The translations under genes were made by a program, and so were the position numbers. The notes below the pieces were generated by a model. It did no database searches. It saw nothing but the letters and a program-made list of their open reading frames with translations, and was not told the origin of the DNA. From positions 28,784,001 to 28,848,000 of the forward strand of contig NC_133024.1 in the NCBI RefSeq assembly GCF_048771995.1: 64,000 nucleotides of DNA. The letters are read 5' to 3'. This DNA is from Taeniopygia guttata (lineage: Eukaryota; Chordata; Aves; Passeriformes; Estrildidae). Positions 19,370-35,615 of this stretch are shown piece after piece; position 1 is the stretch's first letter, and every line of letters begins with the position of its first letter.

Positions 19370-20397
19370 CAGATGTTGTCCAGAATTTCCATTATGAAAA
19401 TTCCAGCTGTGTTTATGGGAATGCAAATCAGAGAAGGATCCTGTAGTGATCTCCCATGTAGATGTTTGCATTTCTTGCCTTGAGCTAAGGACTCTAAACA
19501 AATTACTGTTTTTTCACTTGGAAAAGACTATGCTTTAGAAAAGAAGTGGGGACTACTCTCTTTCTTTGAATTGCTCACTGATGACTGATGACTTTTTTCA
19601 TCATTAAATTACAGTAATACAAAAAAGTGCTTTTAACAGAAATGGGCTTTGTTTCAAATGCTGGCCTCATTGCTTTGTGTTACATGTGAGCATTTCCTAG
19701 AAAATATTGTCCTGGAGTCCTGGATGCTCAATGGAAAGAGGTACAGGACAAGATGATTTGCATGATGTCCTTCTGTCAGTATTAGAGCAGGATGAGCTTT
19801 GAGTTCCATTTTTTTCCTGATTTGATTCAATGTTCCAGACTTGAATCAAGCTGCCATTGCAGTTACATGGCATTGGGGTGTGTGTGTGGAAATAGTTCAA
19901 CGTTTGGTTTGATTCCATGACATTCAAACCTTTTTCAGGTTGCAAACTGGCAGGTTTAAGGAGGGGGTAAACAAATCACCTTTAGATTACAAACAGAAGA
20001 GAAAAAAGAGAAAATGCCTGCTCTCAGACAAGATGAATGTCTTCAAAGGATATTAATCCCAGTAATTGTAATTTTCCTACTAATACAGGTGTTGCTATTT
20101 TCTTTCCCAGAACAAATCGCTATCAAACTTATCTTAGAATTAATAGGGATTTAGTAGATGGTGTATATAATTTATGTTGAAGATATCTTTATTCATATGG
20201 CCATAGTTAGTTAGGAGAGTAGTTACAGACAAGAAAGGTCTTCCAGACTGAGCCTATGAAGTGTTTTCCAATATTTCTGTCGGCTTTCCCTCTTAGATGC
20301 CCAAATATTGATTTAATTCTAAAGAAAGAAAGCTTAGGAGGGAAGATGTACTTAAAGAGGTTGGAAAATAGCACAGGAGCTGCTTTTGACTATCATA

Positions 20398-20817
20398 TGC
20401 ATGAGGAATGTGGAATAATGGCGCGCAAACCAAACTGTGTGGGAGCAGCTGTTCAGGGTGTCCCTGCTGAGCAGCCGTGTGCCCCTGAGCTCAGCCAGGA
20501 GCAGGGCAGCACACACGGATTGTGGGTCGAGCACAGCCCAGGTGTTTTGCTTGTTGGTGTGGTCTGGGAGCTCTGAGGTTTGTTCCTGAAGGTTGGTGAG
20601 GGGAGAGCAGGGAAGGGCAGAGGATGGACCAGCCCTCCCAACACAGGTGTCTCATGGTGCTGGGCTGGGAACCAGCATGGTGACACTGCGGGGTGATGAT
20701 AATGGCATGTCCGAGTAGCATTGCCATGTGCTGAATTTCTACCATCCCTGTTAACTGGCATAAAAAATGCTCCTGCAAGACACTTCTGTCACCTGTGGCA
20801 CAGTTTATGTCATGAGG
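20398..20817. other. Conserved co-duplicated block, copy 1
   Basis: A block of about 420 bp with several CpG sites (for example GGCGCGCAAACC near 20,420), lying about 0.83 kb beyond the stop of the unit 1 TAS2R. By eye it differs from copy 2 (23,418-23,836) at about nine positions beyond its left edge. A frame of 102 codons on the minus strand is open in all three copies, but its composition shows no known domain. It could be an untranslated exon, a regulatory element or a gene-conversion tract. Confidence 0.7.
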
Positions 20818-21646
20818 GGAAGGGCGACTCCAGCACAAATTATCCTTTGGCTTGGTATTTTTTGATTTGTAAAATAAAACAATTGAGGCACAGAGTGAGA
20901 TCAATTACAGGTACATTGCTTTAAACAGATTGACAGCATCCAAACCAGATACATGGAATCAGGATGGGCTGAGTCAACATAAGGCTCAAGTCAAGTATGT
21001 TTCTGTGACTGTTGCTTCAAAAGTAGATGAAAAGGATCATGAAATTCCAGTTGTGATGTAACAATAATGCAGTGACACAGATCACTATTTCAGCAGAGGA
21101 GGAATCTCAAAAGGCCATGTCATTCTTTCCTCAACCATGCTGGAATATTATAGGCACATTTAAAATCAACAAATGGTTTTCTGGAGTACTATCAGTGTCA
21201 TAAATGGTCACTGAGGTATTCCGATAATATTGGGACTTCCTTAGAATCCTAATTAGGAGATTTTAGTAACCAGAAACAACATTCAAGCCTTATATTCACA
21301 AATGAAATCTGATCATGCCTGTGCTTAAACGGGTCTGTTCTATTTGTATCAGGTGTTGTAACGTAAAGCATTCCAAGACATTGCATTCTAGTAATTCTTG
21401 GCTGTGTTTTTCTGATGTATTAGCTAAACTGTGGTGATCTTCTGAACAAAGTACAGTAGATAGTAAAGAATTTAGATAAGTTTTCATAACAAGATTAAAG
21501 ACCAGGTAAAGCAAATTTTCACTTCTTCATGATTCCACATCAAGGCCCTAATCTACTCATTCCAGCATCTCTTATTTATGCCTCTGATGATTTCAATTTA
21601 ATTGACTTGGATCTAAACTAGAAAGTCCAGGCTAAGCCACTGTCTT

Positions 21647-22579
21647 TTACATGGATGAAGTTCTGACACGACACTTAATGTGTTGCCAAATCCTCGCTGG
21701 CAACTCTTGAAATTTTGGATTGCTCCAAAATAAGACGAATGTGTGTGCTGTAGAACAGGCAGCTAATAGAGTTTCACAGATAGATTCCTCAATGCTCAAG
21801 GATAAAAACTCACTGTATAGGAGTAGAAGCAAAGAAATAAAATATATGATGTAAAGGATAAGGAAGGAAAAGACTGACTTGATGGCTTTCATATGGGCCT
21901 CTAAGCTGGGGTCCCCAAAGCCACTTGCATTATTTTGCATGTGTCTAGTGTGTATCCACAGAGACCAAATCAGCAGGATATTTGAAACAACAGACAGTAT
22001 TAAAGGCAAAGCTGTACTTGCATTCCAGAGATTCTTCAATAAAGTCAATCTGTCATTCCATGTGGTTCTCCTTGCTGAAGAGTTTGTCATGGACAAAGGA
22101 GCAGTGAAGTTCTCGTGCACTCTGTAGACATCCCAAGCAAAGGGAATTGCAGCAGTGAAGGAGCAGAGCCATGATGTGAGCAGCATCCAGGGCACCAGCC
22201 TGGCAATTCTTAGCTTCAGCCAGATGAAGAAATGCTGTGTAAAACTGGCAACCTTGATACAATAGAAGACACTAAGCCAGGCTCCAAACCAGAGGCTGGA
22301 GTAGCTAAAAAATATATAGCCTGGATTGAAAACAAAAGATATATCTTCTTTAAAATAGGAGTGTTCACGCAATATATTAATGAACAAATACAGTATATTC
22401 CAGAAATGGAAAATGAATCTAGATGAACTCAGCGAGATCACAATCATATCATACTGGGGCCATGTCTTGCTCCCAATGCAGCTCGATGAACTGGCAGCCA
22501 AGATAATTCCATTTCCTAGAACTCCTGCCAGGAATGCAATTATAGCAACTGACAGAAAGAGGACAGCAAAAGGTGTCAT
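21647..22579 (-). CDS. TAS2R40-like: Bitter taste receptor, TAS2R40-like, copy 1
   Basis: An intact single-exon frame of 310 residues encodes a seven-transmembrane type 2 taste receptor, which signals through gustducin-type G proteins in taste and other chemosensory cells. TAS2R marks: GNGIILAAS in TM1, WFGAWLSVFYCIKVASF in TM3 (residues 97-113), FIWLKLRIARLVPWMLL (118-134) running through loop 2 into TM4, HMKAIKSVFSFLILY in TM6 (229-243) and HTFVLFWSNPKFQELPARI in TM7 (279-297). Sequons N157FT and N166SS lie in extracellular loop 2, where TAS2Rs are usually glycosylated. Identity with copy 2 is about 78% (67 of 310 residues differ). Copies 2 and 3 have an extra Met codon at the start. The TAS2R40 label rests on linkage to KEL and recalled bird annotation. 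Confidence 0.93.
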   Translation of the reverse strand: MTPFAVLFLSVAIIAFLAGVLGNGIILAASSSSCIGSKTWPQYDMIVISLSSSRFIFHFWNILYLFINILREHSYFKEDISFVFNPGYIFFSYSSLWFGAWLSVFYCIKVASFTQHFFIWLKLRIARLVPWMLLTSWLCSFTAAIPFAWDVYRVHENFTAPLSMTNSSARRTTWNDRLTLLKNLWNASTALPLILSVVSNILLIWSLWIHTRHMQNNASGFGDPSLEAHMKAIKSVFSFLILYIIYFISLLLLLYSEFLSLSIEESICETLLAACSTAHTFVLFWSNPKFQELPARIWQHIKCRVRTSSM

Positions 22580-23417
22580 TATTGCAACTCAAGAGCTTGC
22601 AACTATTACCCAGCTGCTCCTGGGCTCCTGAGAACCTCAGATCTGCCATGCACTGCCAATTCCAAGGCGCTGTTATGGGCAATGCTCACCTATTTATCTC
22701 AGGGGCAGAAATATCCTAATGTCATTTAATATTTGTGCTATTTTAGATCTTGTTTTTGGGGTTGCTAGCTCAGGTAATTTGTCTAAGCATGCAAATTGGG
22801 TCAAGATTCAATTACATAGTTTTCATTTTGGTGAAAGGATTTGCATTGGAAGGGTTATGGAGCAGGTGAACTGTGGTGTTTACAAATATGGATTTCCATT
22901 CCAGTGTCTGAAGTCCTGCTTTACATGACTAGATTTGTTTTTTCTATGTGATGCCTTAATGTCTCCCTGTCTTGCACTGTTATCTCTTCATGGTGTCTGA
23001 GACATACATGCCATGGCCTCTTCTAATAGTGGGGTTGTTCTTCTCTTTGTCAGATAGTTTCAAATTTCTGCTGCAGAGAGGATTATCATGCTTTTCTTTT
23101 GTGTGTGGAGATATTTAAGCACTATAATTTTCCAGTAGAACACAGGGATTTAGTAGACTGTGTATAACATGTGTGTTAATGTTAATTTTATAAATATGAG
23201 AATAGTTAGTTGTCTGGTCAGGTGTAGACAGAAAGGTTTTCCAGAAGACTGAGCCTATGATGCATTTTCCAATATTTCGGTTTGCTTTCCCTCTTAGATT
23301 TCCAAATGTAAGCTAATGAACTGGTAAGTATTTGTTTTAATTTTATGGGAAGGAAGCTTTGGAGGGAAGATGTATTTAAAGAAGTGGGAAAATAGCACAT
23401 GCTTTTGACTCTGGTGT

Positions 23418-23836
23418 GCATGAGGAATGTGGAATAATGGCGCGCAAACCAAACTGTGTGGTTGCAGCTGTTCAGGGTGTCCCTGCTGAGCAGCCGTGTG
23501 CCCCCGAGCTCAGCCAGGAGCAGGGCAGCACACACGGATTGTGGGTTGAGCACAGCCCAGGTGTTTTGCTTGTTGGTGTGGTCTGGGAGCTCTGAGGTTT
23601 GTTCCTGAAGGCTGGTGAGGGGAGAGCAGGGAAGGGCAGAGGATGGACCAGCCCTCCCAACACAGGTGTCTCATGGTGCTGGGCTGGGAACCAGCATGGT
23701 GACACTGCGGGGTGATGACAATGGCATGTCCGAGTAGCATTGCCATGTGCTGAATTTCTACCATCCCTGTTAACTGGCATAAAAAATACTCCTGCACGAC
23801 ATTTCTGTCACCTGTGGCACAGTTTATGTCATGAGA
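23418..23836. other. Conserved co-duplicated block, copy 2
   Basis: Nearly the same as the blocks at 20,398-20,817 and 30,352-30,770. It lies about 0.85 kb beyond the stop of the unit 2 TAS2R. By eye it differs from copy 3 at about five or six positions, while the DNA between block and receptor has diverged far more. The 102-codon minus-strand frame is open here also (23,472-23,780). Confidence 0.7.
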
Positions 23837-24680
23837 GAAAGGAATACTCCATCTCAAGTTGCCCTTTGACTTAGCATTTTTTAATTTGTAAAATAAAACA
23901 ATTCAGGCGCAGACTCAGATCAATTACAGGTAGATTGCTTTAAACAGATTGACAGCATCCAAACCAGATACATGGAATCAGGATGGGCTGAGTCAACATA
24001 AGGCTTAAATGATGTATGTTTCTGTGACAGTTGCTTTAAAAGTGTGTAAAATGTCACTACAGCTGGAAAGTGCCATGAAGCTCCAGTTGTGATGTAACAA
24101 TAATGCAGTGACACAGACCACTTTTTCAGCAAAAGGAGGAGTCTCAAAACGCTGTGTCATTCTTTCCTCAGCCCTGCTGGAATGTTATAGGCACCTTTAG
24201 ATCACCAAATATTTTACTAGAGTTCAATCAGTGTCAAAACTGATCAATGTGATATTCTGAAAATATTGGGACTTCCTTAGAATCCTCCTTAGGCGGTTTT
24301 AGTAACCATAAACAGCATTCAAGACTTTTATTAACAAATAAAATGTGTCCATGCCTGTGCTTAAACAGGTCTATTCTATTTGTATAATGAATTGTAATGT
24401 AAAGCATCCCAAGAGACTACTTTCTAGTCAGTCTTGGCTGTGTTTTTCTGATGTCTTAGGGAAACTGGTGATTCCCAATAAATTTACAGCAGATAGTTGA
24501 GAAAATACAGATTTTTTCCTGACCAGAATCACATCCAAGTAAAGCGAATTCCCACCTTCCTATTGACTACATATCAAGGCCCTAAACTCTTCATTCCAGC
24601 ATCTCTTACTGATACCTCTGATCATTTCAATTTAATTGATTTGGATCTAAACTAGAAAGTCCAGGCTAAGTCACTGTCTT

Positions 24681-25616
24681 TTACACGGATGCAGTTCTAA
24701 CATGACACTTAATGTGTTGCCAAATCCTCGCTGGCAACTCTTGAAATTTTGGATTGCTCCAAAGTAAGACGAATGTGTGTGCTGTAGGGCAGGCAGCCAT
24801 TAAAACTGCAGAGAGTAAATCTCCACTGCTTAAAGGTAAAAAAGCATTGAATACAATGATAAGCACACAAATAAAAAATATGATGTAAAGGATAAGGAAG
24901 GAAAAGACTGACTTGATGGCTTTCATATGAGCCTCTAAGCTGGGATCCCCAAAGCCACTTGCATTATTTTGCATGTGTCTAGTGTGTATCCACAGAGACC
25001 GAATCAGCAGGATATTTGAAACAACAGACAACATTAAAGGCAGACCTATACTGGCATTACAGAGGATAATTAATAAATCCAATCTGTCATTCCATGTGGT
25101 TCTCCTTGCTGAAGAGTTTGTCATGGACAAAGGAGAAGTGAAGTTCTCGTGCACACTGTAGACATCCCAGGCAAAGGGAATTGCAGCAGCGAAGGAGCAG
25201 AGCCATGATGTGAGCAGCATCCAGGGCACCAGCCTGGCAATTCTTAGCTTCAGCCAGATGAAGAAATGCTGTGTAAAACTGGCAACCTTGATACAATAGA
25301 AGACACTAAGCCAGGCTCCAAACCAGAGGCTGGAGTAGCTCAGAAGCGTAAAAATTACCTTGGTAAGTGTTAGCAGGTTTTCTTTATAAAAGAAGGGTTC
25401 ACAAAATATAATTATTAAGAAATCCAGTGTAGCCCATAACTGAAAAATCAATCTAGATGAACTCAGCGAGATCACAATCATATCATATGGGGGCCATGTC
25501 TTGCTCCCAATGCAGCTCGATGAACTGGCAGCCAAGATAATTCCATTTCCTAGAATTCCTGCCAGGGATTCAATTATAGCAACTGACAGAAAGAGGACAG
25601 CAAAAGGTGTCATCAT
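24681..25616 (-). CDS. TAS2R40-like: Bitter taste receptor, TAS2R40-like, copy 2
   Basis: An intact single-exon frame of 311 residues starts MMTPFAVLF. It shares all the TAS2R marks of copy 1. The stretch from TM3 through loop 2 into TM4 (copy 1 residues 92-141) has no amino acid difference from copy 1. By contrast, copy 1 residues 55-91 (TM2, loop 1, start of TM3) carry 27 or 28 of the 67 differences, and residues 246-272 (end of TM6, loop 3, start of TM7) hold most of the rest. These are regions that shape the ligand pocket and its mouth. The two loop 2 sequons (NFT, NSS) are kept. Confidence 0.93.
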   Translation of the reverse strand: MMTPFAVLFLSVAIIESLAGILGNGIILAASSSSCIGSKTWPPYDMIVISLSSSRLIFQLWATLDFLIIIFCEPFFYKENLLTLTKVIFTLLSYSSLWFGAWLSVFYCIKVASFTQHFFIWLKLRIARLVPWMLLTSWLCSFAAAIPFAWDVYSVHENFTSPLSMTNSSARRTTWNDRLDLLIILCNASIGLPLMLSVVSNILLIRSLWIHTRHMQNNASGFGDPSLEAHMKAIKSVFSFLILYIIFFICVLIIVFNAFLPLSSGDLLSAVLMAACPTAHTFVLLWSNPKFQELPARIWQHIKCHVRTASV

Positions 25617-26168
25617 TGCAACTCAAGAGCTTGCAACTATTACCCAGCTGCTCCTGGGCTCCTGAGAACCTCAGATCTGCCATGCACTGCCAATTCCAAG
25701 GCGCTGTTATGGGCAATGCTCACCTATTTATCTCAGGGGCAGAAATATCCTAATGTCATTTAATATTTGTGCTATTTTAGATCTTGTTTTTGGGGTTGCT
25801 AGCTCAGCTGATTTGTCTAAGCATGCAAATTGGGTCAAGATTCAATAGCATAGTTTTCATTTTGGTGAAAGGATTTGCATTGGAAGGGTTATGGAGCAGG
25901 TGAACTGTGGTGTTTACAAATATGGATTTCCATTCCAGTGTCTGAAGTCCTGCTTTACATGACTAGATTTGTTTTTCTCTATGTGATGCCTTAATGTCTC
26001 CCTGTCTTGCACTGTTATCTCTTCATGGTTTCTGAGACATACATGCCATGGCCTCTTCTAATAGTGGTGTTGTTCTTCTCTTTGTCAGATATTTTCAAAT
26101 TTCTGCTGCAGAGAGGATTATCATGCTTTTCTTTTGTGTATGGAAAATTTCAAGCAGTATAATTTTCC

Positions 26169-27391
26169 TTGCATGTTTGCTCTGAATGTCCCAATGGAGA
26201 ACAATAAATTTCTGTGGGACAATCAGAACAGAGAAATGGAAATAATTTTACAGAGTACCTCACTGGTCCATTATTCACGAGCCTCCAAAAATAGATGTGG
26301 AATTTGCCTAACAAATTTAAGATCTGGGAATATACAACATTACATACCGGAGCAATAGCACATGTGTCAATTGAGGCACAATTTTGTTTCCATATTCCAT
26401 ATGGAATATACATGCTTTTGAAATTCTGTTATATGTGGTAAAAGAAGTGAATTCAAACACTTTCCGCATCCAAGAAGATATAGGTCTTCTAAATAAGTGA
26501 AGAGGCTTGGATTAATTGAAAAGCTTTGGAATTCACATCTTATCTGTAGCCCAGAATACAGAAGGAAACACATAAAGGCTCTTCACAAATGCTGTGACAC
26601 AAGTAGCTGTCAGTAGTACAGTAAGCTGTGGGCAGTGACCAAATGAGAAATTTTGAGATGTTTTCAAGGTTGTTTCTTTGAGTTTTTTCAAATTTCCTAT
26701 TGCTTAATATAAATTATTTACTTTAGTATTAATGCAAAATCTTTTTCTGTTCTCATTAAAAATATTATTAATAATTAATTTTAGTGAGAGCAACATGATT
26801 GCATATGCTTCACTATTTTTTTTAAACTGTTCTTACCACTTTGTGACACTGTGATTAGAGGCCTCACTCTATGTTTAATTTTGTGTACTACATGCTCTGA
26901 ATGGCTTTCTCACTATCACATCTGCAAAGTTCTTTGTTGAAATTCAGTTGAAATTGCCAATTTCCTTCTTGTCAAAACTTGCAAACTATTCACGTATTCT
27001 TCTGGTTTTATATGTTTAACAAATGGGTTCAAAACTCAGAGAAGCTATTCCTTTGGAGGTTTTTAAAACAGTGTAGAAGATTCTGCTTCCAAATTTGCAG
27101 GTGTACCTGTATGAGTGTTTTTGAAGTTGTCACACTTATACGATTTTTGGCACCAAAAACTTTTGAAAAGCAGTTACTTTCTCATCTCCTTTTAGAATTT
27201 CACTTTCAACTTGAAGAAATAAAAAAGTGTCTTTGGTTTTTTGACAGGAACTGCTGTGTAGCATGCTAGTGACAGACACTTCCAATAGAAAAAGGCGAGC
27301 AAATATTTATCATTTCCCTTTCAGTAAAAGAAAGCTGAGTAGCTGCTGTTTCAATTCAAGTCATTAAATTCAGATCTTTTAAAGCTCACTC
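26169..27391. other. Spacer between TAS2R units 2 and 3, left part
   Basis: An AT-rich stretch with no supported gene or repeat. Short open frames at 26,979-27,269 and elsewhere have no family features. Confidence 0.4.
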
Positions 27392-27530
27392 ATGGAATCA
27401 CAGAATCACAAAATGGTTTGGGTTGAAAGGGTCTTTAAAGACCATCCCCCAGTTCCAACGCCCTGCCATAGGCAGGGACACCTTCCTGTAGACCAGGCAA
27501 CTCACAGCCCCCTTCAGCATTGAGCCTGAG
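27392..27530 (-). mobile_element. CR1 LINE 3' end fragment
   Basis: The plus strand reads GGAATCACAGAATCAC, then AATGGTTTGGGTTGAAAGGG, then CCCTGCCATAGGCAGGGACA, the reverse of the CR1 3' end. It is a short 5'-truncated copy of about 140 bp. Confidence 0.9.
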
Positions 27531-28233
27531 GCTCTTGCCACAAGATAACCATGCCTGTATGATATGTGTGGGGTTTATGGGCAAGGCGCTGGTAGTGGGG
27601 AGGCTGCAGGGGTGGTTTGTCCAAGAAGAGACCAGAAGTTGCCTCTGTGTCGCACAGAACCAGTCCCAGCTTCCTCAAAAGGGACCCCGCACTGGCCAAG
27701 GATCTGCCCACCAGTGATGCCAGTGACATCTCTGTGGCAACTCATTTAAAGAATAGTAAATGAAGCAGTCCCTGCTCTGGTGCCATTTGTAGCAGTGGGG
27801 AACAAAGTGACACGGCCCCTTTATACATCTAAAGGAGAATGCTTTATTGTAAAAATTGGCCCCTTTTTATACCTTTAATTTTAACCTGGCATCACTGAAA
27901 ACAAACCAAAACTTAACAGAACTTGACAGAAAGAAGGCACCCATCGGCTGGCTCAGCTGTCATGCTGCTGTCCACGTGTCCTACCATCCAGTTTCCTGCT
28001 CATACACTGTCCATGCGTTCCTTCATCGTGGACAGTGTATCCAATCACAATCCCAATTGTGAACACACAGTGTCCATTCACAATCTCACTTCCAGCTGAC
28101 TCTCTCCTCACTCATAGCCTCTCATCTCTCAACCAACGTCCAACTATCCACCCTGCAGCTGTGCCTTTCCTATGGGGCCTTCTTGTGAGCATAAGCCTTA
28201 GCAACTTTAATAATTATAACCCCATATCCTACA
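27530..28233 (-). mobile_element. Fossil retroviral LTR (27,788-28,233) with adjoining internal leader
   Basis: The 446-bp LTR has matching inverted ends (TGTAG/CTACA) and a poly(A)-type AATAAA on the minus strand near 27,845. Two bases beyond its 3' end, at 27,768-27,785, lies TGGCACCAGAGCAGGGAC, which by my count matches a lysine-tRNA primer-binding site at 15 of 18 positions. The DNA at 27,530-27,767 would be internal leader. Family is probably ERVK-like (inference). It is a broken, truncated fossil with no gag or pol text recognised. Confidence 0.65.
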
Positions 28234-28299
28234 GGTAAAGACCAGTGCACAGCAGCTGTGAGAGAGAGAGGACAGAGAGAGAATATGTGAGAGAAACAG

Positions 28300-28720
28300 C
28301 CTGGCAGACAGCCAGGTCAGTGAAGAAGGAAGGGGTCAATATGTTCCAGGCACCAGAGCAGACATTGCCATGCTTTCCCTGGAAAGGACCATGCTGATGG
28401 AGACTGTGATCCTGCAGGCCCTGGCAGACCACACTGCAGCAGATATCCACACTGCAGCCTGAGCAGAGCTCCCCTGGCACCAGGTGGTAGTGCCCTGAAG
28501 GAAGCTGCATCCTGGGGAAATCCCACCATGGAAAAGGCTCGTGGCAGGAGCTGCAGCCTGTAGGGATCCCATGCTGAAGCAGGTTGCTCCTGGAAGATTG
28601 CACCTTGTGGAGAGGATCCCCTGTGCAATCCCCATTCCCTGATCCTCTGCCCTGCTCAGTGGGGGAATGGAAGAGTGAAGAGGAAGGGATGGGGGGGAAA
28701 GTCTCTGATTATATCCCCTA
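28300..28720. mobile_element. Possible old ERVL-type LTR fragment
   Basis: A GC-richer block containing GGATCCCATGCTGAAGCAGG at about 28,564 and a trailing GGAAGAGTGAAGAGGAAGGG segment. It resembles, from memory, an LTR type found widely in bird genomes with repeated 'ccatgctggagcag' units. Boundaries and family are uncertain. Confidence 0.4.
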
Positions 28721-28794
28721 GTCTCTTATTGATTGGAATTCAAATTCAGTTATTTTGCCCATGTTGAAGGAATCCCTACAAGGCAAGGCAAAGA

Positions 28795-29200
28795 CAGTGA
28801 GAGCACTGTCAGGCCTGCAGTCCACCCACAATGTGGGCGAGGACAACAGATAAGCTCCATGAGAACAATTAGGGACAGCCACAAGTCCAGGGATTGCCAG
28901 TCATATCCAGAGTGATAAGACATCCCCAGGATCAAGCCAGTAATTCCAATCTGCAGGCCAGGATCGGTATCTAAGTAAGCTAAGCAGGTGGAAAGGCAAA
29001 ACTGCAGCACAGCTCAAGGAAAGACCAAGGTTGACCATCAAGCTTGGAAGCAGCTCCTGAATGTAGAGGGGTCCAAGCCTCACTGAGGCCTCACTCAACA
29101 ATTTTCTAAAAGGCCAGCCAGGTGGACTGTGGAAGTTGGCTCTGAAACAGGGCAGCGAAACCCCCCAAAATAAGGCCTTAATTTCACCAGAAAGTCCATT
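28795..29200. repeat. Dispersed repeat family, copy 1 (left of TAS2R unit 3)
   Basis: A second copy in the same orientation lies at about 35,190-35,615. Shared landmarks include AGCTAAGCAGGTGGAAAG-like text, GCACAGCTCAAGGA, GAAGCAGCTCCTGAA-like text, GGTCAGCCAGCTGTG-like text and GTGGAAGTTGGCTCTGAAAC. I suspect an LTR-type element but cannot place its family. Confidence 0.7.
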
Positions 29201-30351
29201 CACAGCTTTTTGTCTTCCCCTGTCCCCACATACACAGAAAAGCAGTACAGCCTAGCACACAGGCTTTAAATCCTGCAGTGTTGGGCACTGAAAATTGACT
29301 CAATTGCATGTTGTTTTGAATTTCAATAATGAAAATTCTAGGTGTGCTTATAGGAATGCAAATCAGAGAAGGATCCTCTCATGTAGATATTTGCATTTCT
29401 TGCCTTGAGCTAAGGACTCTAATCAGACTACTGGGTTTTTTTTGGAAAAGACTGTGCTTTAGAAAATAAATGTATTCTTCTGTCTTTCTCTGATTTCCTT
29501 ACTGATTATAATTTTCATCATTAAAATACAGAAACCCAGAAGAGTGCCTTTACCAGAAAAGGGCTTTGTTTCTAATGCTGGCCTCATTGTTTTATGTTAC
29601 ATGTGGGCAGTTCCCTAGAAAATTTTGTGGGTTTTTTTTCCTGGATGCTCAATGGAAGGAGGTACAGGACAAGATGATTTGCATGATGTCCTTCTGGCAG
29701 TGTTAGAGGAGGATGAGCTTTGAATTTTATTTGTTTCCTGATTTGATTCACTGTACCAGAATTGAATCGAGCTGCAAGAGGGTCTGAGTAGCATTGGTGT
29801 GTATGCAAATAGTACATGTTTTGGAAGGGTCTGAGTCCATGACTTTAAAATTTTCATCAGGTTGGTATATGGTTAGTTAAGATGTGGGAATCAAACTAAT
29901 TTCCATCTTATGGACAAACACACAAAAAGAGAAAAATGCCTACTTTCAAACAAGATGTGTGACAACAGAGGATCACAACTGCTATAATTCTCATTTTTTT
30001 TTAGTACAGAGGCTGTTATTTTGTTTCTCAGAACAAATTTTTGTCAAATTTATTTATTAACTTATTCAGTAAAACACAGGGAATTAGTAGATGGTGTATA
30101 TAATGCATGTTAAAGATATTTTTATTCGTGTGATAATAATTAGCTAGGTGGTATATTACAGAGAGGAACATCTAGCAGGAAACTGGCCCTATGAGGTGCC
30201 TTCCAGTATCTTTGTCAGAGTTCCCTCTTAGATCCCCAAATTCATGTGAGTAAACTGGTAACTATTTAATTTAATTTTATGGAAAGGAAGCTTTGGAGGG
30301 AAGTTGTATTTAAAGAAGTGGGAAAATAGCACATGCTTTTGACTCTGGTGT

Positions 30352-30770
30352 GCATGAGGAATGTGAAATAATGGCGCGCAAACCAAACTGTGTGGTTGCA
30401 GCTGTTCAGGGTGTCCCTGCTGAGCAGCCGTGTGCCCCTGAGCTCAGCCAGGAGCAGGGCAGCACACACGGATTGTGGGTTGAGCACAGCCCAGGTGTTT
30501 TGCTTGTTGGTGTGGTCTGGGAACTCTGAGGTTTGTTCCTGAAGGCCGGTGAGGGGAGGGCAGGGAAGGGCAGAGGATGGACCAGCCCTCCCAACACAGG
30601 TGTCTCATGGTGCTGGGCTGGGAACCAGCATGGTGACACTGCGGGGTGATGACAATGGCATGTCCGAGTAGCATTGCCATGTGCTGAATTTCTACCATCC
30701 CTGTTAACTGGCATAAAAAATACTCCTGCACGACATTTCTGTCACCTGTGGCACAGTTTATGTCATGAGG
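30352..30770. other. Conserved co-duplicated block, copy 3
   Basis: About 98-99% like copy 2 by eye, although the surrounding unit 3 DNA and the receptor have diverged much more. It lies 0.6 kb beyond the stop of the unit 3 TAS2R. The CpG-bearing strings (GGCGCGCAAACC, ATGTCCGAGTAG, CTGCACGACA) are kept. The 102-codon minus-strand frame (30,406-30,714) is open. Confidence 0.7.
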
Positions 30771-31366
30771 AGAAGGAAGACTCCAACACAAATTATCCTT
30801 TGATATGTCATTTTTTAATTTAAAAATAAAACAATTGAGGCACAGAGTCAGATCAATTACAGGTACATTGCTTCAAACAGATTGACAGCATCCAAAACGG
30901 ATACATTGAATCAGGATGGGCTTAGTCCATATAAGGCTCAGGCCAAGTATGTTTCTGTGCTTCAAAAGTGGATAAACTCCCACTGTAGCTGGAAAGACTC
31001 CCAAAACTCCAGACCTAATGTAACAATAATGCACTGACAACAATCATTACTTCAGGAAGAGCAGAAGAAGATCAAAATACTCTTTTGTTCTTTACCGAAT
31101 CATACAGGAATCTGAGTCATTGCCTTGTTTTTTTCTTGTCCCAGAGGAACCATGGCAATTTCCAAGGAAAGGGTAGCAAATAGGAGACAACTTACACAAT
31201 TTTTCAAAACAAGACTCACATTTAAGTAATGCAAATTTCCACTCTTCATGATTCCAGATCAAGGCCAAAATCTATTAATTCCATTGCCCATTATTTTATA
31301 TCTCTGACAACTTCATTTTAATTAGTTTGGATCTAAACTAGAAAGTGCAGGCTAAATCATGATCTT

Positions 31367-32302
31367 TTACATGGATATTGTTCTGACAGGACACTTTGTG
31401 TGGTGCCAAATCCTAGCTGGCAACTCTTGAAATTTTGGATTGCTCCAAATTAAAACCATTGTGTGTCCTGTAGGACAGGCAGCCATTATAACTATACACA
31501 TGGATTCCTTATCACTAAAAAGTGAAAAAACTCTGGAGTAGAGGACAAGCAAACAAATAAAATATGTAACGAAAAGGACAAAGAAGGAACAGATTGACTT
31601 GATGGCTTTCATATGAGCCTCTAAGCTGGGGTCCCCGAAGCCAGTTGCATTATTTTGCATTTCCCTGGTGTGTACCCACAGAGACCGAATCAGCAGGATA
31701 TTTGGAACAACAGACAGTATTAAAGGCAAAGCTGTACTTGCACTCCAGAGATAAATCAGTAAAGTCAATCTGTCATTCCATGTGGTTCTCCTTGCTGAAG
31801 AATTTGTCATGGACAGAGGAGAAGTGAAGTTCTCGTGCACACTGTAGACATCCAAGGCAAAGGGAATTGCAGCAGTGAAGGAGCAGAGCCATGATGTGAG
31901 CAGCATCCAGGGCACCAGCCTGGCAATTCTTAGCTTCAGCCAGATGAAGAAATGCTGTGTAAAACTGGCAACCTTGATACAACAGAAGACACTAAGCCAG
32001 GCTCCAAACCAGAGGCTGGAGTAGATCAGAAACGTAAAAATTGTCTCGGAAACTATGTACATGTTTCTTTTAGAAAAGACGGGCTCATAAAATATACTTA
32101 TTAAGAAATCCAGTGTAGCCCATAACTGCAGAATTAATCTAGATGAACTCAGCGAGATCATGATCATATCATACTGGGGCCATGTCTTGCTCCCGATGCA
32201 GCTTGATGTACTGGCAGCCAAAATAATTCCATTTCCTAGAACTCCTGCCAGGGATTCAATCACAGCAATTGATAGACAAAGGAGAGCAAAAGGTGTCATC
32301 AT
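31367..32302 (-). CDS. TAS2R40-like: Bitter taste receptor, TAS2R40-like, copy 3
   Basis: An intact single-exon frame of 311 residues starts MMTPFALLCLS. It keeps the TM3 motif (here SVFCCIKVASF), FIWLKLRIARLVPWMLL, the loop 2 sequons NFT and NSS, HMKAIKS in TM6 and SNPKFQELPARI in TM7. It groups with copy 2 in TM2 (LWATLDFLI) but with copy 1 in the loop 2 to TM5 stretch (LWxASTALPLILSVV), a mosaic that suggests gene conversion among the units. The loop 3 region (FSLFSDKESMCIV) is unlike both others. Confidence 0.93.
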   Translation of the reverse strand: MMTPFALLCLSIAVIESLAGVLGNGIILAASTSSCIGSKTWPQYDMIMISLSSSRLILQLWATLDFLISIFYEPVFSKRNMYIVSETIFTFLIYSSLWFGAWLSVFCCIKVASFTQHFFIWLKLRIARLVPWMLLTSWLCSFTAAIPFALDVYSVHENFTSPLSMTNSSARRTTWNDRLTLLIYLWSASTALPLILSVVPNILLIRSLWVHTREMQNNATGFGDPSLEAHMKAIKSICSFFVLFVTYFICLLVLYSRVFSLFSDKESMCIVIMAACPTGHTMVLIWSNPKFQELPARIWHHTKCPVRTISM

Positions 32303-32790
32303 TGCAACTCAAGAGCTTGCAATTATTACCCAGCTGCTCCTGGGTTTCTGAAAGCCTCAGATCTGGCACTGCCAATTCCAAGGCGCTGTTATGGGCAATG
32401 CTCACCTATTTATCTCAGGGGCAGAAATATCCTAATATCATTTAATATTTGTGCTGTTTTACATCTTGTTTTTGGGGTTGCTAGCTCAGCTGACTTGTCT
32501 AAGCATGCACATTGGGTCAAGATTCAATTACATAGTTTTGATTTTGGTGAAAGGATTTGCATTGGAAGGGTTATGGAGCAGCTCAACTGGGGATTTAGGA
32601 ACTGTGGTTTTGCACTTCAGTATGTGATGTCCTGCTTTACATGCCTAGATTGGTTGTTTTTTAATACCTTATTCCTAAATCTCTCCCTGTCTTGCACTCT
32701 CATGTCTTCTTTGTTTATGAGTGTAATCTCAGTGGCCTCTTCTAATACTGAATCAGGTCCTTATCAAATGTATTCAAATATCTGCAAATC

Positions 32791-35189
32791 GGCTTGGTGG
32801 GCATGTGACAGCCAATCACGGTCAACTTCCCACCAGTATACAGGATTTTCTTTGTCTCTCCCCTACCATTGCACAGTATTTTAAAAGTCCTAATATTTCA
32901 AGGCCTTGTTTTTATGAAATGAACCAAACTGATGACATCCTCTAGCACCTTTTGCAGGTCTGGCTCCAGTTTCTTTGCTGTAATAACTCATCTATGAACA
33001 TTGCAGTGAATGAATTCCAGGTGTAGCGGCAACTACGTAATCTTACCAACCAATCCTTCTTTTATGTGAGTCAAAGCAGCTATTCCACTGGCCTTTACAC
33101 TTGCACAGCTTTTCCAGAAAACATTTTTATTAAAGAAATAATTTACTGTTGAGAATACAGCTTATGTGGTAAATCTTCCCTTCAGTGGCTTACAGAAGGT
33201 AGCTCTTCATTTATTTCACCATTGAAACAGAATTTGTCAAATACCTTAATCTGAGACATTTTAGAAGCATTTGTAGTTTCATCCATTCACTCAAGAATCC
33301 TCTTTCACTATGTAATTTGTAATTTGCAGATACTTGTCTCTTCAAACCTTAAGTAGTATTTTCTATGTGTCTTCTAACAGTGTTTGCTGACAACAGAATC
33401 CATTTTAGTTTGCTGCTCTATTGCTTTCTGTGTATTATCCCAGCCATTTTTATTTTTTATGGCAGGAGGAATAAGTGTTCTCTGGCACTATGTGACATTT
33501 TTTCTTTTGCTGTGAAGGAAAAAACCTCAAAGGAGGCTTCTCTACACATTTGTCATTACGTTTGGTGAAATTTTTTTAAGTACTGTATTCAATGTCACGT
33601 GGCTTAAAACATGGCTGAAAAAATTGTAGAGGTTTGTCTTTGTGCTCTGGATGCTTATATTTTAAATATCTTGCTAATTCTGATGACTTCATAGTGACAT
33701 TACCTAAATTTTCGTAGCATTCTCAAAGTGAAATTATCAAGTACTTCCTGTCCATGTGATCTGCATGGCCAACTGTGTGCTTGAATAGTCTGACTGTATG
33801 TGCTTGTGTGTGTTTCTAAAGACCACAGGATGATAAAGTCATAGAATGGTTTGGATTGGAAGGGATTGTACATATCATCTAGTTCCAATTTCCTCACCAC
33901 AGGCAGGGATACCAGCCCAAGGAGTATTTGCTCAGCCTTACTCCCTAGCTTGACTTCAAGAAAACAGAGCTGTAGCATCCACACCTCATCAGGATAATGG
34001 ATTTATCCACTTGTAGCAATACAGGCAATACATGACAGAATCTAATTAAGTAGAATAGCAAGTATAGATATAAACAAATAGCATAAATACCATCTCTGCT
34101 GGAGATGTTTCAATAGGATATGTTAGACATTTAACGAAATTATGGAACAATGGAACAATGTCTGTTTATAGTTATTAACATACTACAGTACCCTCCTAAT
34201 GTTGTACAATTAGAAAATCAGACACAGTTTGAAGTCAACAAACTGCTTACAGAAATAATTCTAAATTTAGGGTTATTACTAAAATGCAATTCATCCCTTA
34301 TGCAACAAACTACAGAACTTGCAGTTGTTTCATGCAACTTTATATTATCCTGGGCACCCACACCAGGGAATGACCTTTGTTTCCATGGCTAAGAGACCTG
34401 GAGTGACTCATGTGCCTCTACTCACTGCAGTCCTCAAAAGCCAAGCCAAGCCTACCCTGTCTGGGAATGGGCTGACAATCTTAGTGACACTGCTGCCATT
34501 TCAGCTGCTGGATTTGATTCTGCTCCTATATTCTCAATTATGCTCATCTTCAGGAATTATCTAGAAAGTACTGGAGCAATCTTTTTCTCCAGGAAGGGTC
34601 AAAGAAAGTTGCTGATGGGTAGATAATTCCTGCACCCTGCAAAAATGACCATCCAATTCCTGGGATCATATTGTGCTGTGCACTTAGGTGAAACAGCAGG
34701 AAGTGACATATTTTGACCTGAAAAGGATCAGTTTAAGATTCTATGTAGTGATATCATGTCTGTCACTGTCACCATATCACATTCAGGTCACCAACACCTG
34801 AGAAGAAGGTGCTCCATTGCATTTTGCAGCCTTACTCCCTCAATGCTGATTGTCAGGCACTCAGTCTGAATGCATGACGCAGATGGAGACAAAGGTCTAC
34901 CCATGAGTCAAAATCAATATCAGAGATCAGATGGGTGCTAGCTGAACCTGAACATCCCATTCTCATGGAGTCAACTAGCAAAGTACATATATATCCCCAT
35001 ACACGGTTTATAGAAAGGTAACCTCAGAAACCTAGTAGTCAACTATTTCAAAAGCTGCTCAACATTGTGTGAGTCCACAGGGAGAATTATGTTTGAAGCA
35101 TAGATTACAATGGCCATGTCAAGGAGCAGCAGGAGGAGCTGTTCCATAAGGAAAAGAGATCCAAAAAGGCAGCATCACCACAAGAGCAG
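32791..35189. other. Intergenic DNA right of the TAS2R cluster
   Basis: Apart from a CR1 tail at 33,836-33,985, no gene is supported. An open stretch of about 80 codons at 34,150-34,392 has no domain that I recognise and may come from an old insertion. Confidence 0.4.
33836..33985 (-). mobile_element. CR1 LINE 3' end fragment
   Basis: The plus strand reads CATAGAATGGTTTGGATTGG, then CATCTAGTTCC and AGGCAGGGATACCAGC, the reverse of the CR1 3' end. The copy is short and diverged. Confidence 0.87.
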
Positions 35190-35615
35190 ACAAGGACAGG
35201 ACTGTCAAGCATGCAGTCCCACCTCCTATGGACAAGGAGAGCAAAGAAGCTCTATGATGGGTCAGCCAGCAGTCCAGTCATACCAGATGTGTCCATAGTG
35301 ATATGACAGTAATTTCAGTTTGTAGACCAGGAGCAGTATCCATGTCAGCTAGGCAGGTGGAAAGACTCCAGCAAAGCTACAGCACAGCTCAAGGAGAGAG
35401 CAAGGTTAACACCCATCTTAGAAGAAGCTCCTGAAATGAAAGGGGGTTGAGCCCTGCTGAGGCATCTCCCAGCAATCTGTTTTAAGGTCAGCCAGCTGTG
35501 CTGTGGAAGTTGGCTCTGAAACTCAGCAGCCAAAACCCCAAAAGCAGTGCAGAGCCCCTAATCGTATTCACCATAGCAGTACCTGGGAACTTTATCAATG
35601 AGTCCATCCCAGTCC
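35190..35615. repeat. Dispersed repeat family, copy 2 (right of TAS2R unit 3)
   Basis: Same orientation and same landmark order as the copy at 28,795-29,200, including GCACAGCTCAAGGAGAG and GTGGAAGTTGGCTCTGAAAC. Together the copies bracket TAS2R unit 3 at a spacing of about 6.4 kb. Confidence 0.68.

What the first reader, a model, noticed from the sequence alone, without database searches (positions are those of the whole stretch)
20398..30770. A 415-bp block beside each TAS2R is more conserved than the receptors themselves
The blocks at 20,398-20,817, 23,418-23,836 and 30,352-30,770 differ by about 1-2.5% by eye, while receptors 1 and 2 differ at 67 of 310 residues and the DNA between block and receptor has diverged visibly, most of all in unit 3. 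The block keeps CpG sites and lies at a fixed side of each gene. Separate insertions are unlikely because the flanks align too. Explanations are purifying selection (regulatory element, untranslated exon or RNA of the taste receptor locus) or focused gene conversion.
Basis: partly seen in the sequence, partly recalled or inferred. Interest (0 to 1): 0.75.

Follow-up and report, generated by a model that had tools for sequence, protein, structure and literature searches.

The report
Homogenised patches between bitter-receptor gene copies
Three neighbouring bird bitter-taste receptor genes share short stretches that are almost identical while the DNA between those stretches has drifted apart, most likely because the copies keep overwriting one another in patches, and a second bitter-receptor cluster in the same genome shows a similar pattern.

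Summary
The block at 20398-20817, 23417-23836 and 30351-30770 differs by 1.4-2.9% without gaps, against 16-25% in the DNA on either side and 11-14% across the receptor coding sequence. Three copies were found in this 1.14-Gb genome, so it is not a high-copy repeat within the reach of those searches.

It is not alone. The middle of each receptor (22062-22261, 2-3%) and the 5' flank (22589-22820, 1.7-5.3%) are about as alike. Relatedness switches along the unit: block plus left edge groups units 2 and 3, adjacent DNA does not (P=2e-6; block alone P=0.003). Synonymous divergence is patchy for two of three pairs. The unrelated four-gene TAS2R cluster on contig C4 carries its own homogenised patch at each gene; its fourfold sites differ at 0 of 24-28 per pair, against 5-16 of 48-58 beyond it.

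Best reading: patchy ectopic gene conversion between tandem TAS2R copies. Purifying selection on the block itself remains possible, because no second bird genome could be searched. A 2015 survey of avian Tas2r genes found little conversion (passage of PMC4607536).

The parts
20398..20817 (.). Block, copy 1 (GC 55%), on the 3' side of receptor 1
23417..23836 (.). Block, copy 2, on the 3' side of receptor 2 (and about 830 bp upstream of receptor 1)
30351..30770 (.). Block, copy 3, on the 3' side of receptor 3
20334..20397 (.). Left edge of the block: at 8 of 9 variable sites units 2 and 3 agree against unit 1; run 20351-20397 for pair 2-3, permutation P=0.008
21647..22588 (-). Receptor 1, TAS2R open frame (Pfam PF05296, E=1e-67)
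24681..25622 (-). Receptor 2, TAS2R open frame (PF05296, E=4e-70)
31367..32308 (-). Receptor 3, TAS2R open frame (PF05296, E=9e-67)
22062..22261 (-). Homogenised tract inside receptor 1 (2-3% from its counterparts at 25096-25295 and 31782-31981)
22289..22420 (-). Divergent tract of receptor 1, codons 57-100 of the open frame (the 100-column window from 22312 has 60% identity for 1v2 and 1v3, 80% for 2v3)
21761..21847 (-). Second divergent tract of receptor 1, codons 248-276 of the open frame
22589..22820 (.). Homogenised 5' flank of receptor 1 (1.7% to unit 2, 5.3% to unit 3)
22821..23133 (.). Far 5' flank: units 1 and 2 alike (9/313), both about 26% from unit 3; two runs with permutation P=0.0002

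Best explanation
The block is one of several patches in a three-copy TAS2R tandem array that are kept alike by ectopic (between-paralogue) gene conversion, while the intervening DNA and two hypervariable receptor segments have been left to diverge. Shown: near-identity of the patches, a switch of relatedness along the unit, patchy synonymous divergence (two of three pairs), and a similar pattern in an independent TAS2R cluster. Inferred: that the agent is gene conversion, and that the patches are places where exchange starts or is tolerated. The GC-richness of the block and of much of the C4 patch would fit conversion-prone, promoter-like sites, as described for birds, which lack PRDM9, or GC-biased repair.
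For: Block plus left edge: 16 of 23 singleton sites set unit 1 apart, against 31 of 160 in the noncoding DNA between block and receptor (Fisher P=2e-6; block alone 8 of 14, P=0.003); in the 5' flank 81 of 88 set unit 3 apart. Fourfold sites of the receptors differ less than the noncoding DNA beside them: 4/102 v 134/825 (P=3e-4), 10/103 v 132/575 (P=0.002), 9/104 v 150/591 (P=7e-5). Synonymous divergence within the receptor is patchy: divergent tracts 15.3/45.5 v rest 11.0/163.5 for pair 1-2 (P=2e-5), pair 1-3 P=0.005. In the divergent tracts, pairs 1-2 and 1-3 differ about equally at codon positions 1, 2 and 3, as unconverted old divergence would. C4 cluster, 4 genes, codons 1-64: pS 0-0.034 and fourfold 0/24 to 0/28 in all six pairs, against pS 0.26-0.33 and 5-16 of 48-58 beyond codon 64 (Fisher on pS, P from 8e-4 to 1e-6); the 5' flank there is also alike. 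That patch has four copies in the genome, one per C4 receptor, and no similarity to the block beyond 13-15 bp. GC correlates with paralogue identity in both clusters (rho 0.54-0.81 for the whole C1 unit; 0.61-0.69 in C4). The left edge of the block fits a gradient better than a step (AIC 375.4 v 379.6).
Against: No orthologous DNA from another bird could be searched, so constraint on the block is untested. The right edge fits a step slightly better than a ramp (AIC 353.5 v 355.6), as a bounded functional element would. A synonymous mosaic is not seen for pair 2-3 (P=0.82). Fourfold sites in the first divergent receptor stretch (22262-22411) differ at 0 of 27, three pairs pooled, which does not fit old neutral divergence there. 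GC does not explain every patch: the 5' flank of C1 is homogenised at ordinary GC (rho 0.06, 0.24 and 0.10 at windows of 50, 60 and 100; 0.54, P=0.06, at 40) and the overall rho falls to 0.41 without the block. Only 14 variable sites lie in the block, and a faster unit-1 lineage could mimic the 2+3 grouping. Singletons in the block show no W-to-S excess (7 v 6). The C4 patch is not gap-free: it holds a GC-rich length-variable stretch, and whole-patch identities against the c1 copy are 76-85%.
Confidence: 0.66

Rival explanations
1. Purifying selection on a cis-regulatory element (enhancer, insulator or promoter-like element) carried by each TAS2R unit keeps the block unchanged.
For: Bounded 420-bp block without indels between gapped flanks; step-like right edge; CpG at twice the window's observed/expected ratio; one per gene at a constant side.
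Against: Constraint alone predicts the same branching order as the adjacent DNA, which is not seen (P=0.003 for the block alone); the ratio of block to flank divergence is 0.15, 0.12 and 0.06 for the three pairs; equally homogenised tracts include synonymous sites.
Confidence: 0.2
2. The block is a transcribed untranslated exon, 3' UTR part or structured RNA of the receptor locus.
For: Lies about 600-845 bp downstream of each stop codon; an AATAAA lies about 200 bp beyond it on the minus strand in unit 1 (TTTATT at 20188); a minus-strand frame of 130-142 codons is open across most of it in all three copies.
Against: No Rfam match; folding z-scores 0.91 and -0.06 for copy 1; no Pfam match at E<=1; variable sites show no codon-position signature (4, 7, 3 in that frame); unit 2 has an AATAAA before the block (TTTATT at 24327).
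Confidence: 0.08
3. The block is a high-copy transposable element or the result of separate insertions.
For: GC-rich patch in AT-rich DNA; a six-base direct repeat (CATGAG) lies at both ends of all three copies.
Against: Three genome copies only; the same search recovered a 70%-identical copy of another segment; flanks align in all three units. The search skips very common words.
Confidence: 0.02
4. Recent tandem duplication alone, with fast-evolving intervening DNA.
For: Units 1 and 2 are adjacent and alike over their last 500 bp.
Against: The same pairs go from 93-99% to 64-74% identity within about 200 bp, and the branching order changes.
Confidence: 0.04

Closest known systems
Patchy concerted evolution by ectopic gene conversion in tandem gene families (general knowledge, recalled)
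   Same: Homogenised tracts, switching relatedness, patchy synonymous divergence, divergent receptor segments spared
   Different: The longest homogenised stretch is a noncoding block rather than an exon; conversion is inferred from one genome
Avian Tas2r clusters (survey of 48 bird genomes, PMC4607536, passages read)
   Same: A few clusters of 2-5 TAS2R genes; three and four genes here
   Different: That survey reports only two possible conversion events, from GENECONV tests among paralogous genes, and judged conversion not a major factor; here homogenised patches are plain, one of them wholly noncoding
PRDM9-independent recombination at promoter-like and CpG-rich DNA in birds (PMC5519329 and PMC10781513, passages read)
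   Same: GC-rich patches; the block has more CpG than its surroundings
   Different: The block is not a CpG island by the usual ratio (0.23-0.26); no recombination data for this locus

Membership tests
TAS2R bitter taste receptor cluster | Intact single-exon frames matching PF05296 | tested here: met
   3 of 3 frames in the window, E 9e-67 to 4e-70; 7 matches in the genome from 13 scored candidates, 3 here and 4 on C4
Gene conversion between paralogues | Change of branching order along aligned copies | tested here: met
   a faster unit-1 lineage in the block could mimic it
Gene conversion between paralogues | Pair-specific identity runs beyond permutation | tested here: met
   Pair 1-2 P=0.0002 at 22824-22992 and 23058-23104; pair 2-3 P=0.0014 at 22379-22406 and 0.008 at 20351-20397; pair 1-3 best P=0.037. 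The permutation ignores autocorrelation
Gene conversion between paralogues | Homogenised silent sites | tested here: met
   divergent-versus-rest contrast absent for pair 2-3
Gene conversion between paralogues | Block phylogeny groups by species, not by position, across species | not testable with these tools
   no other bird genome held
GC-biased gene conversion | GC rises with paralogue identity | tested here: inconclusive
   Positive overall in both clusters (shift control run for C1 only); weak in the C1 5' flank at three of four window sizes; 0.41 (P=0.004) without the block
Dispersed repeat | Many copies genome-wide | tested here: not met
   3 copies
Conserved noncoding element | Conserved between species | not testable with these tools
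   no other bird genome held
Structured RNA | Family match or stable fold | tested here: not met

The most novel reading that the evidence does not exclude
Each TAS2R array of this bird carries a GC-rich patch at every gene that acts as a stable focus of meiotic exchange between paralogues; the patches differ in sequence and position between arrays but do the same job, homogenising gene ends and flanks while sparing the divergent, probably ligand-binding, segments, so that receptors diversify on a shared, repeatedly overwritten frame.
Probability: 0.25. Interest if true: 0.62.

Novelty: new member of a known kind. Interest (0 to 1): 0.42.

Why it matters
The one avian survey seen here judged gene conversion minor in bird bitter receptors (PMC4607536, passage). 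If both TAS2R arrays of this bird are homogenised in focused patches, one of them noncoding, surveys of receptor genes alone may miss much of it, trees of these receptors mix histories, and songbird arrays become a test case for whether PRDM9-free, promoter-like exchange sites shape gene families.

Tried and rejected
High-copy repeat: rejected (the search could find a 70%-identical segment). An exact 16-mer over the right edge of copy 2 gave that place and one on contig C2, reversed control 1: uninformative. Protein-coding block: open frames exist, but no Pfam match and no third-position pattern. RNA. Positive selection as the sole cause of the hypervariable receptor tracts: raw counts suggested it (17 nonsynonymous, 0 synonymous codon differences in codons 76-100, pair 1-2), but codon positions 1-3 differ about equally for pairs 1-2 and 1-3 and pN/pS is 0.84-1.61, no Fisher P below 0.27; it remains open, because fourfold sites at 22262-22411 differ at 0 of 27. 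A 5' untranslated exon is unlikely: the three block copies found all lie at lower coordinates than receptor 3, so none lies upstream of that minus-strand gene. Davis 2010 (white-throated sparrow TAS2R cluster) is not held and was not read; I know it from its citation in PMC4607536 and recall. PMC4607536, PMC10463633, PMC10781513 and PMC5519329 were seen as passages; other papers only as search listings.
Full report
What is there. The window lies in a 1.14-Gb genome of 41 contigs; that it is a songbird rests on the finding's wording, since no tool names the organism. Three intact TAS2R genes lie on the minus strand at 21647-22588, 24681-25622 and 31367-32308. A genome search with receptor 1 gives seven matches from 13 scored candidates: these three and four more, 28-31% identical, on contig C4.

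The observation. Aligning the three units and counting, the block differs at 10/420, 12/420 and 6/420 sites without gaps; the left flank at 56/248, 56/248 and 64/273; the DNA between block and receptor at 134/825, 132/575 and 150/591; the receptor coding sequence at 106/936, 132/936 and 121/936. The block is 55% GC in surroundings of 34-39%. The whole block finds three genome places, 3 of 3 candidates scored, and a 29-mer with up to three mismatches finds the same three. A search with another 378-bp segment found a 70%-identical copy, so copies of that likeness are within reach, apart from very common words, which the tool skips.

The block is not the only such stretch. Receptor positions 22062-22261 differ at 4, 6 and 4 of 200 sites, and 22589-22820 at 4/232, 12/228 and 12/228. 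The longest stretch identical in all three copies (106 bp) lies in the receptor, the next (93 bp) in the block; the longest run in 2000 shuffles was 80. The four lowest non-overlapping 200-column windows start at 20607, 22103, 20398 and 22565 with 4, 5, 8 and 9 variable columns; the fifth has 28.

Conversion or constraint. Constraint without exchange should leave the branching order unchanged. Of singleton sites, 16 of 23 in the block and its left edge set unit 1 apart, against 31 of 160 in the DNA between block and receptor (P=2e-6; block alone 8 of 14, P=0.003; 0.009 if two neighbouring changes count once), while 81 of 88 in the 5' flank set unit 3 apart. A faster unit-1 lineage in the block would give the same count and cannot be excluded. 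Receptor fourfold sites differ less than the noncoding DNA beside them in all three pairs, and synonymous divergence is concentrated in two tracts for pairs 1-2 and 1-3, not for 2-3. Permutation tests find pair-specific runs for 1-2 and 2-3, among them the left edge of the block (P=0.008); the permutation ignores autocorrelation.

A second cluster. I fetched 18 kb around the C4 cluster. Its four receptors share a patch of about 520-600 bp covering the 5' flank and the first 64 codons. In 60-column windows it is 81-95% identical in the outermost window, 88-97% just after the start codon and 92-100% in the other windows that could be scored; one window could not be scored and another only for three pairs, because a GC-rich stretch there varies in length. 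Upstream the copies barely align; in the first window downstream identity is 73-78% in five of six pairs (97% for c1-c2), and in the next 63-72% in all six. In codons 1-64 fourfold sites differ at 0 of 24 to 0 of 28 in each of six pairs; beyond, at 5 to 16 of 48 to 58. Amino-acid constraint does not explain that silent-site result. The patch is found four times in the genome, one per C4 receptor, the other three at 76-85% identity to the c1 copy, and matches the block over no more than 13-15 bp.

GC. Paralogue identity rises with GC in the C1 unit (rho 0.54-0.81 over four window sizes; 0 or 1 circular shifts reach it) and in C4 (0.61-0.69, no shift control), as GC-biased conversion or GC-rich exchange sites would give. 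Against this, the homogenised C1 5' flank is not GC-rich, the correlation falls to 0.41 without the block, and singletons in the block show no bias. I therefore leave the hotspot reading as the novel case, not the verdict.

Literature. PMC4607536 (passages) surveyed 48 bird genomes, tested conversion among paralogous genes, found two possible events and judged it not a major factor. PMC5519329 and PMC10781513 (passages) place recombination in birds at promoter-like and CpG-rich DNA. Seven searches listed no paper that I recognised as describing this block; most papers were seen only as listings, and the library lacks most subscription journals.

Verdict. A real, well-measured feature. Patchy conversion in this array is well supported; that conversion rather than constraint explains the block itself is likely but needs a second species.

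Changes made on checking: the coordinates of the divergent receptor tracts and of the CATGAG repeat were corrected, gaps in the C4 patch are now told, and the octamer control was recounted.

Noticed in passing
G000:C4:6300123-6300723 and counterparts near 6303219-6303766, 6307529-6308048, 6312624-6313185: Homogenised, partly GC-rich patch covering the 5' flank and first 64 codons of four otherwise diverged TAS2R genes; four copies in the genome.
   Followed up: yes
19421-32555: The octamer ATGCAAAT (recalled as a POU-factor consensus; POU2F3 recalled as a bitter taste cell factor) occurs 19 times in the window on both strands, 12 of them here, several as duplicates of each other. It ranks first of 735 permuted 8-mers without CG (mean 3.4, next 15). 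Only one in 18 kb of the C4 cluster.
   Followed up: partly
22289-22420 and 21761-21847: Two hypervariable receptor segments (codons 57-100 and 248-276 of the frame); pairs 1-2 and 1-3 differ about equally at all codon positions, so old divergence and diversifying selection are hard to separate.
   Followed up: partly
28792-29169 and 35188-35543: A 70%-identical pair of segments on either side of unit 3 with no other genome match found.
   Followed up: partly
20400-20405 and 20811-20816: A six-base direct repeat CATGAG lies at both ends of the block in all three copies (also 23419, 23830, 30353, 30764), perhaps chance, perhaps an old target-site duplication.
   Followed up: partly
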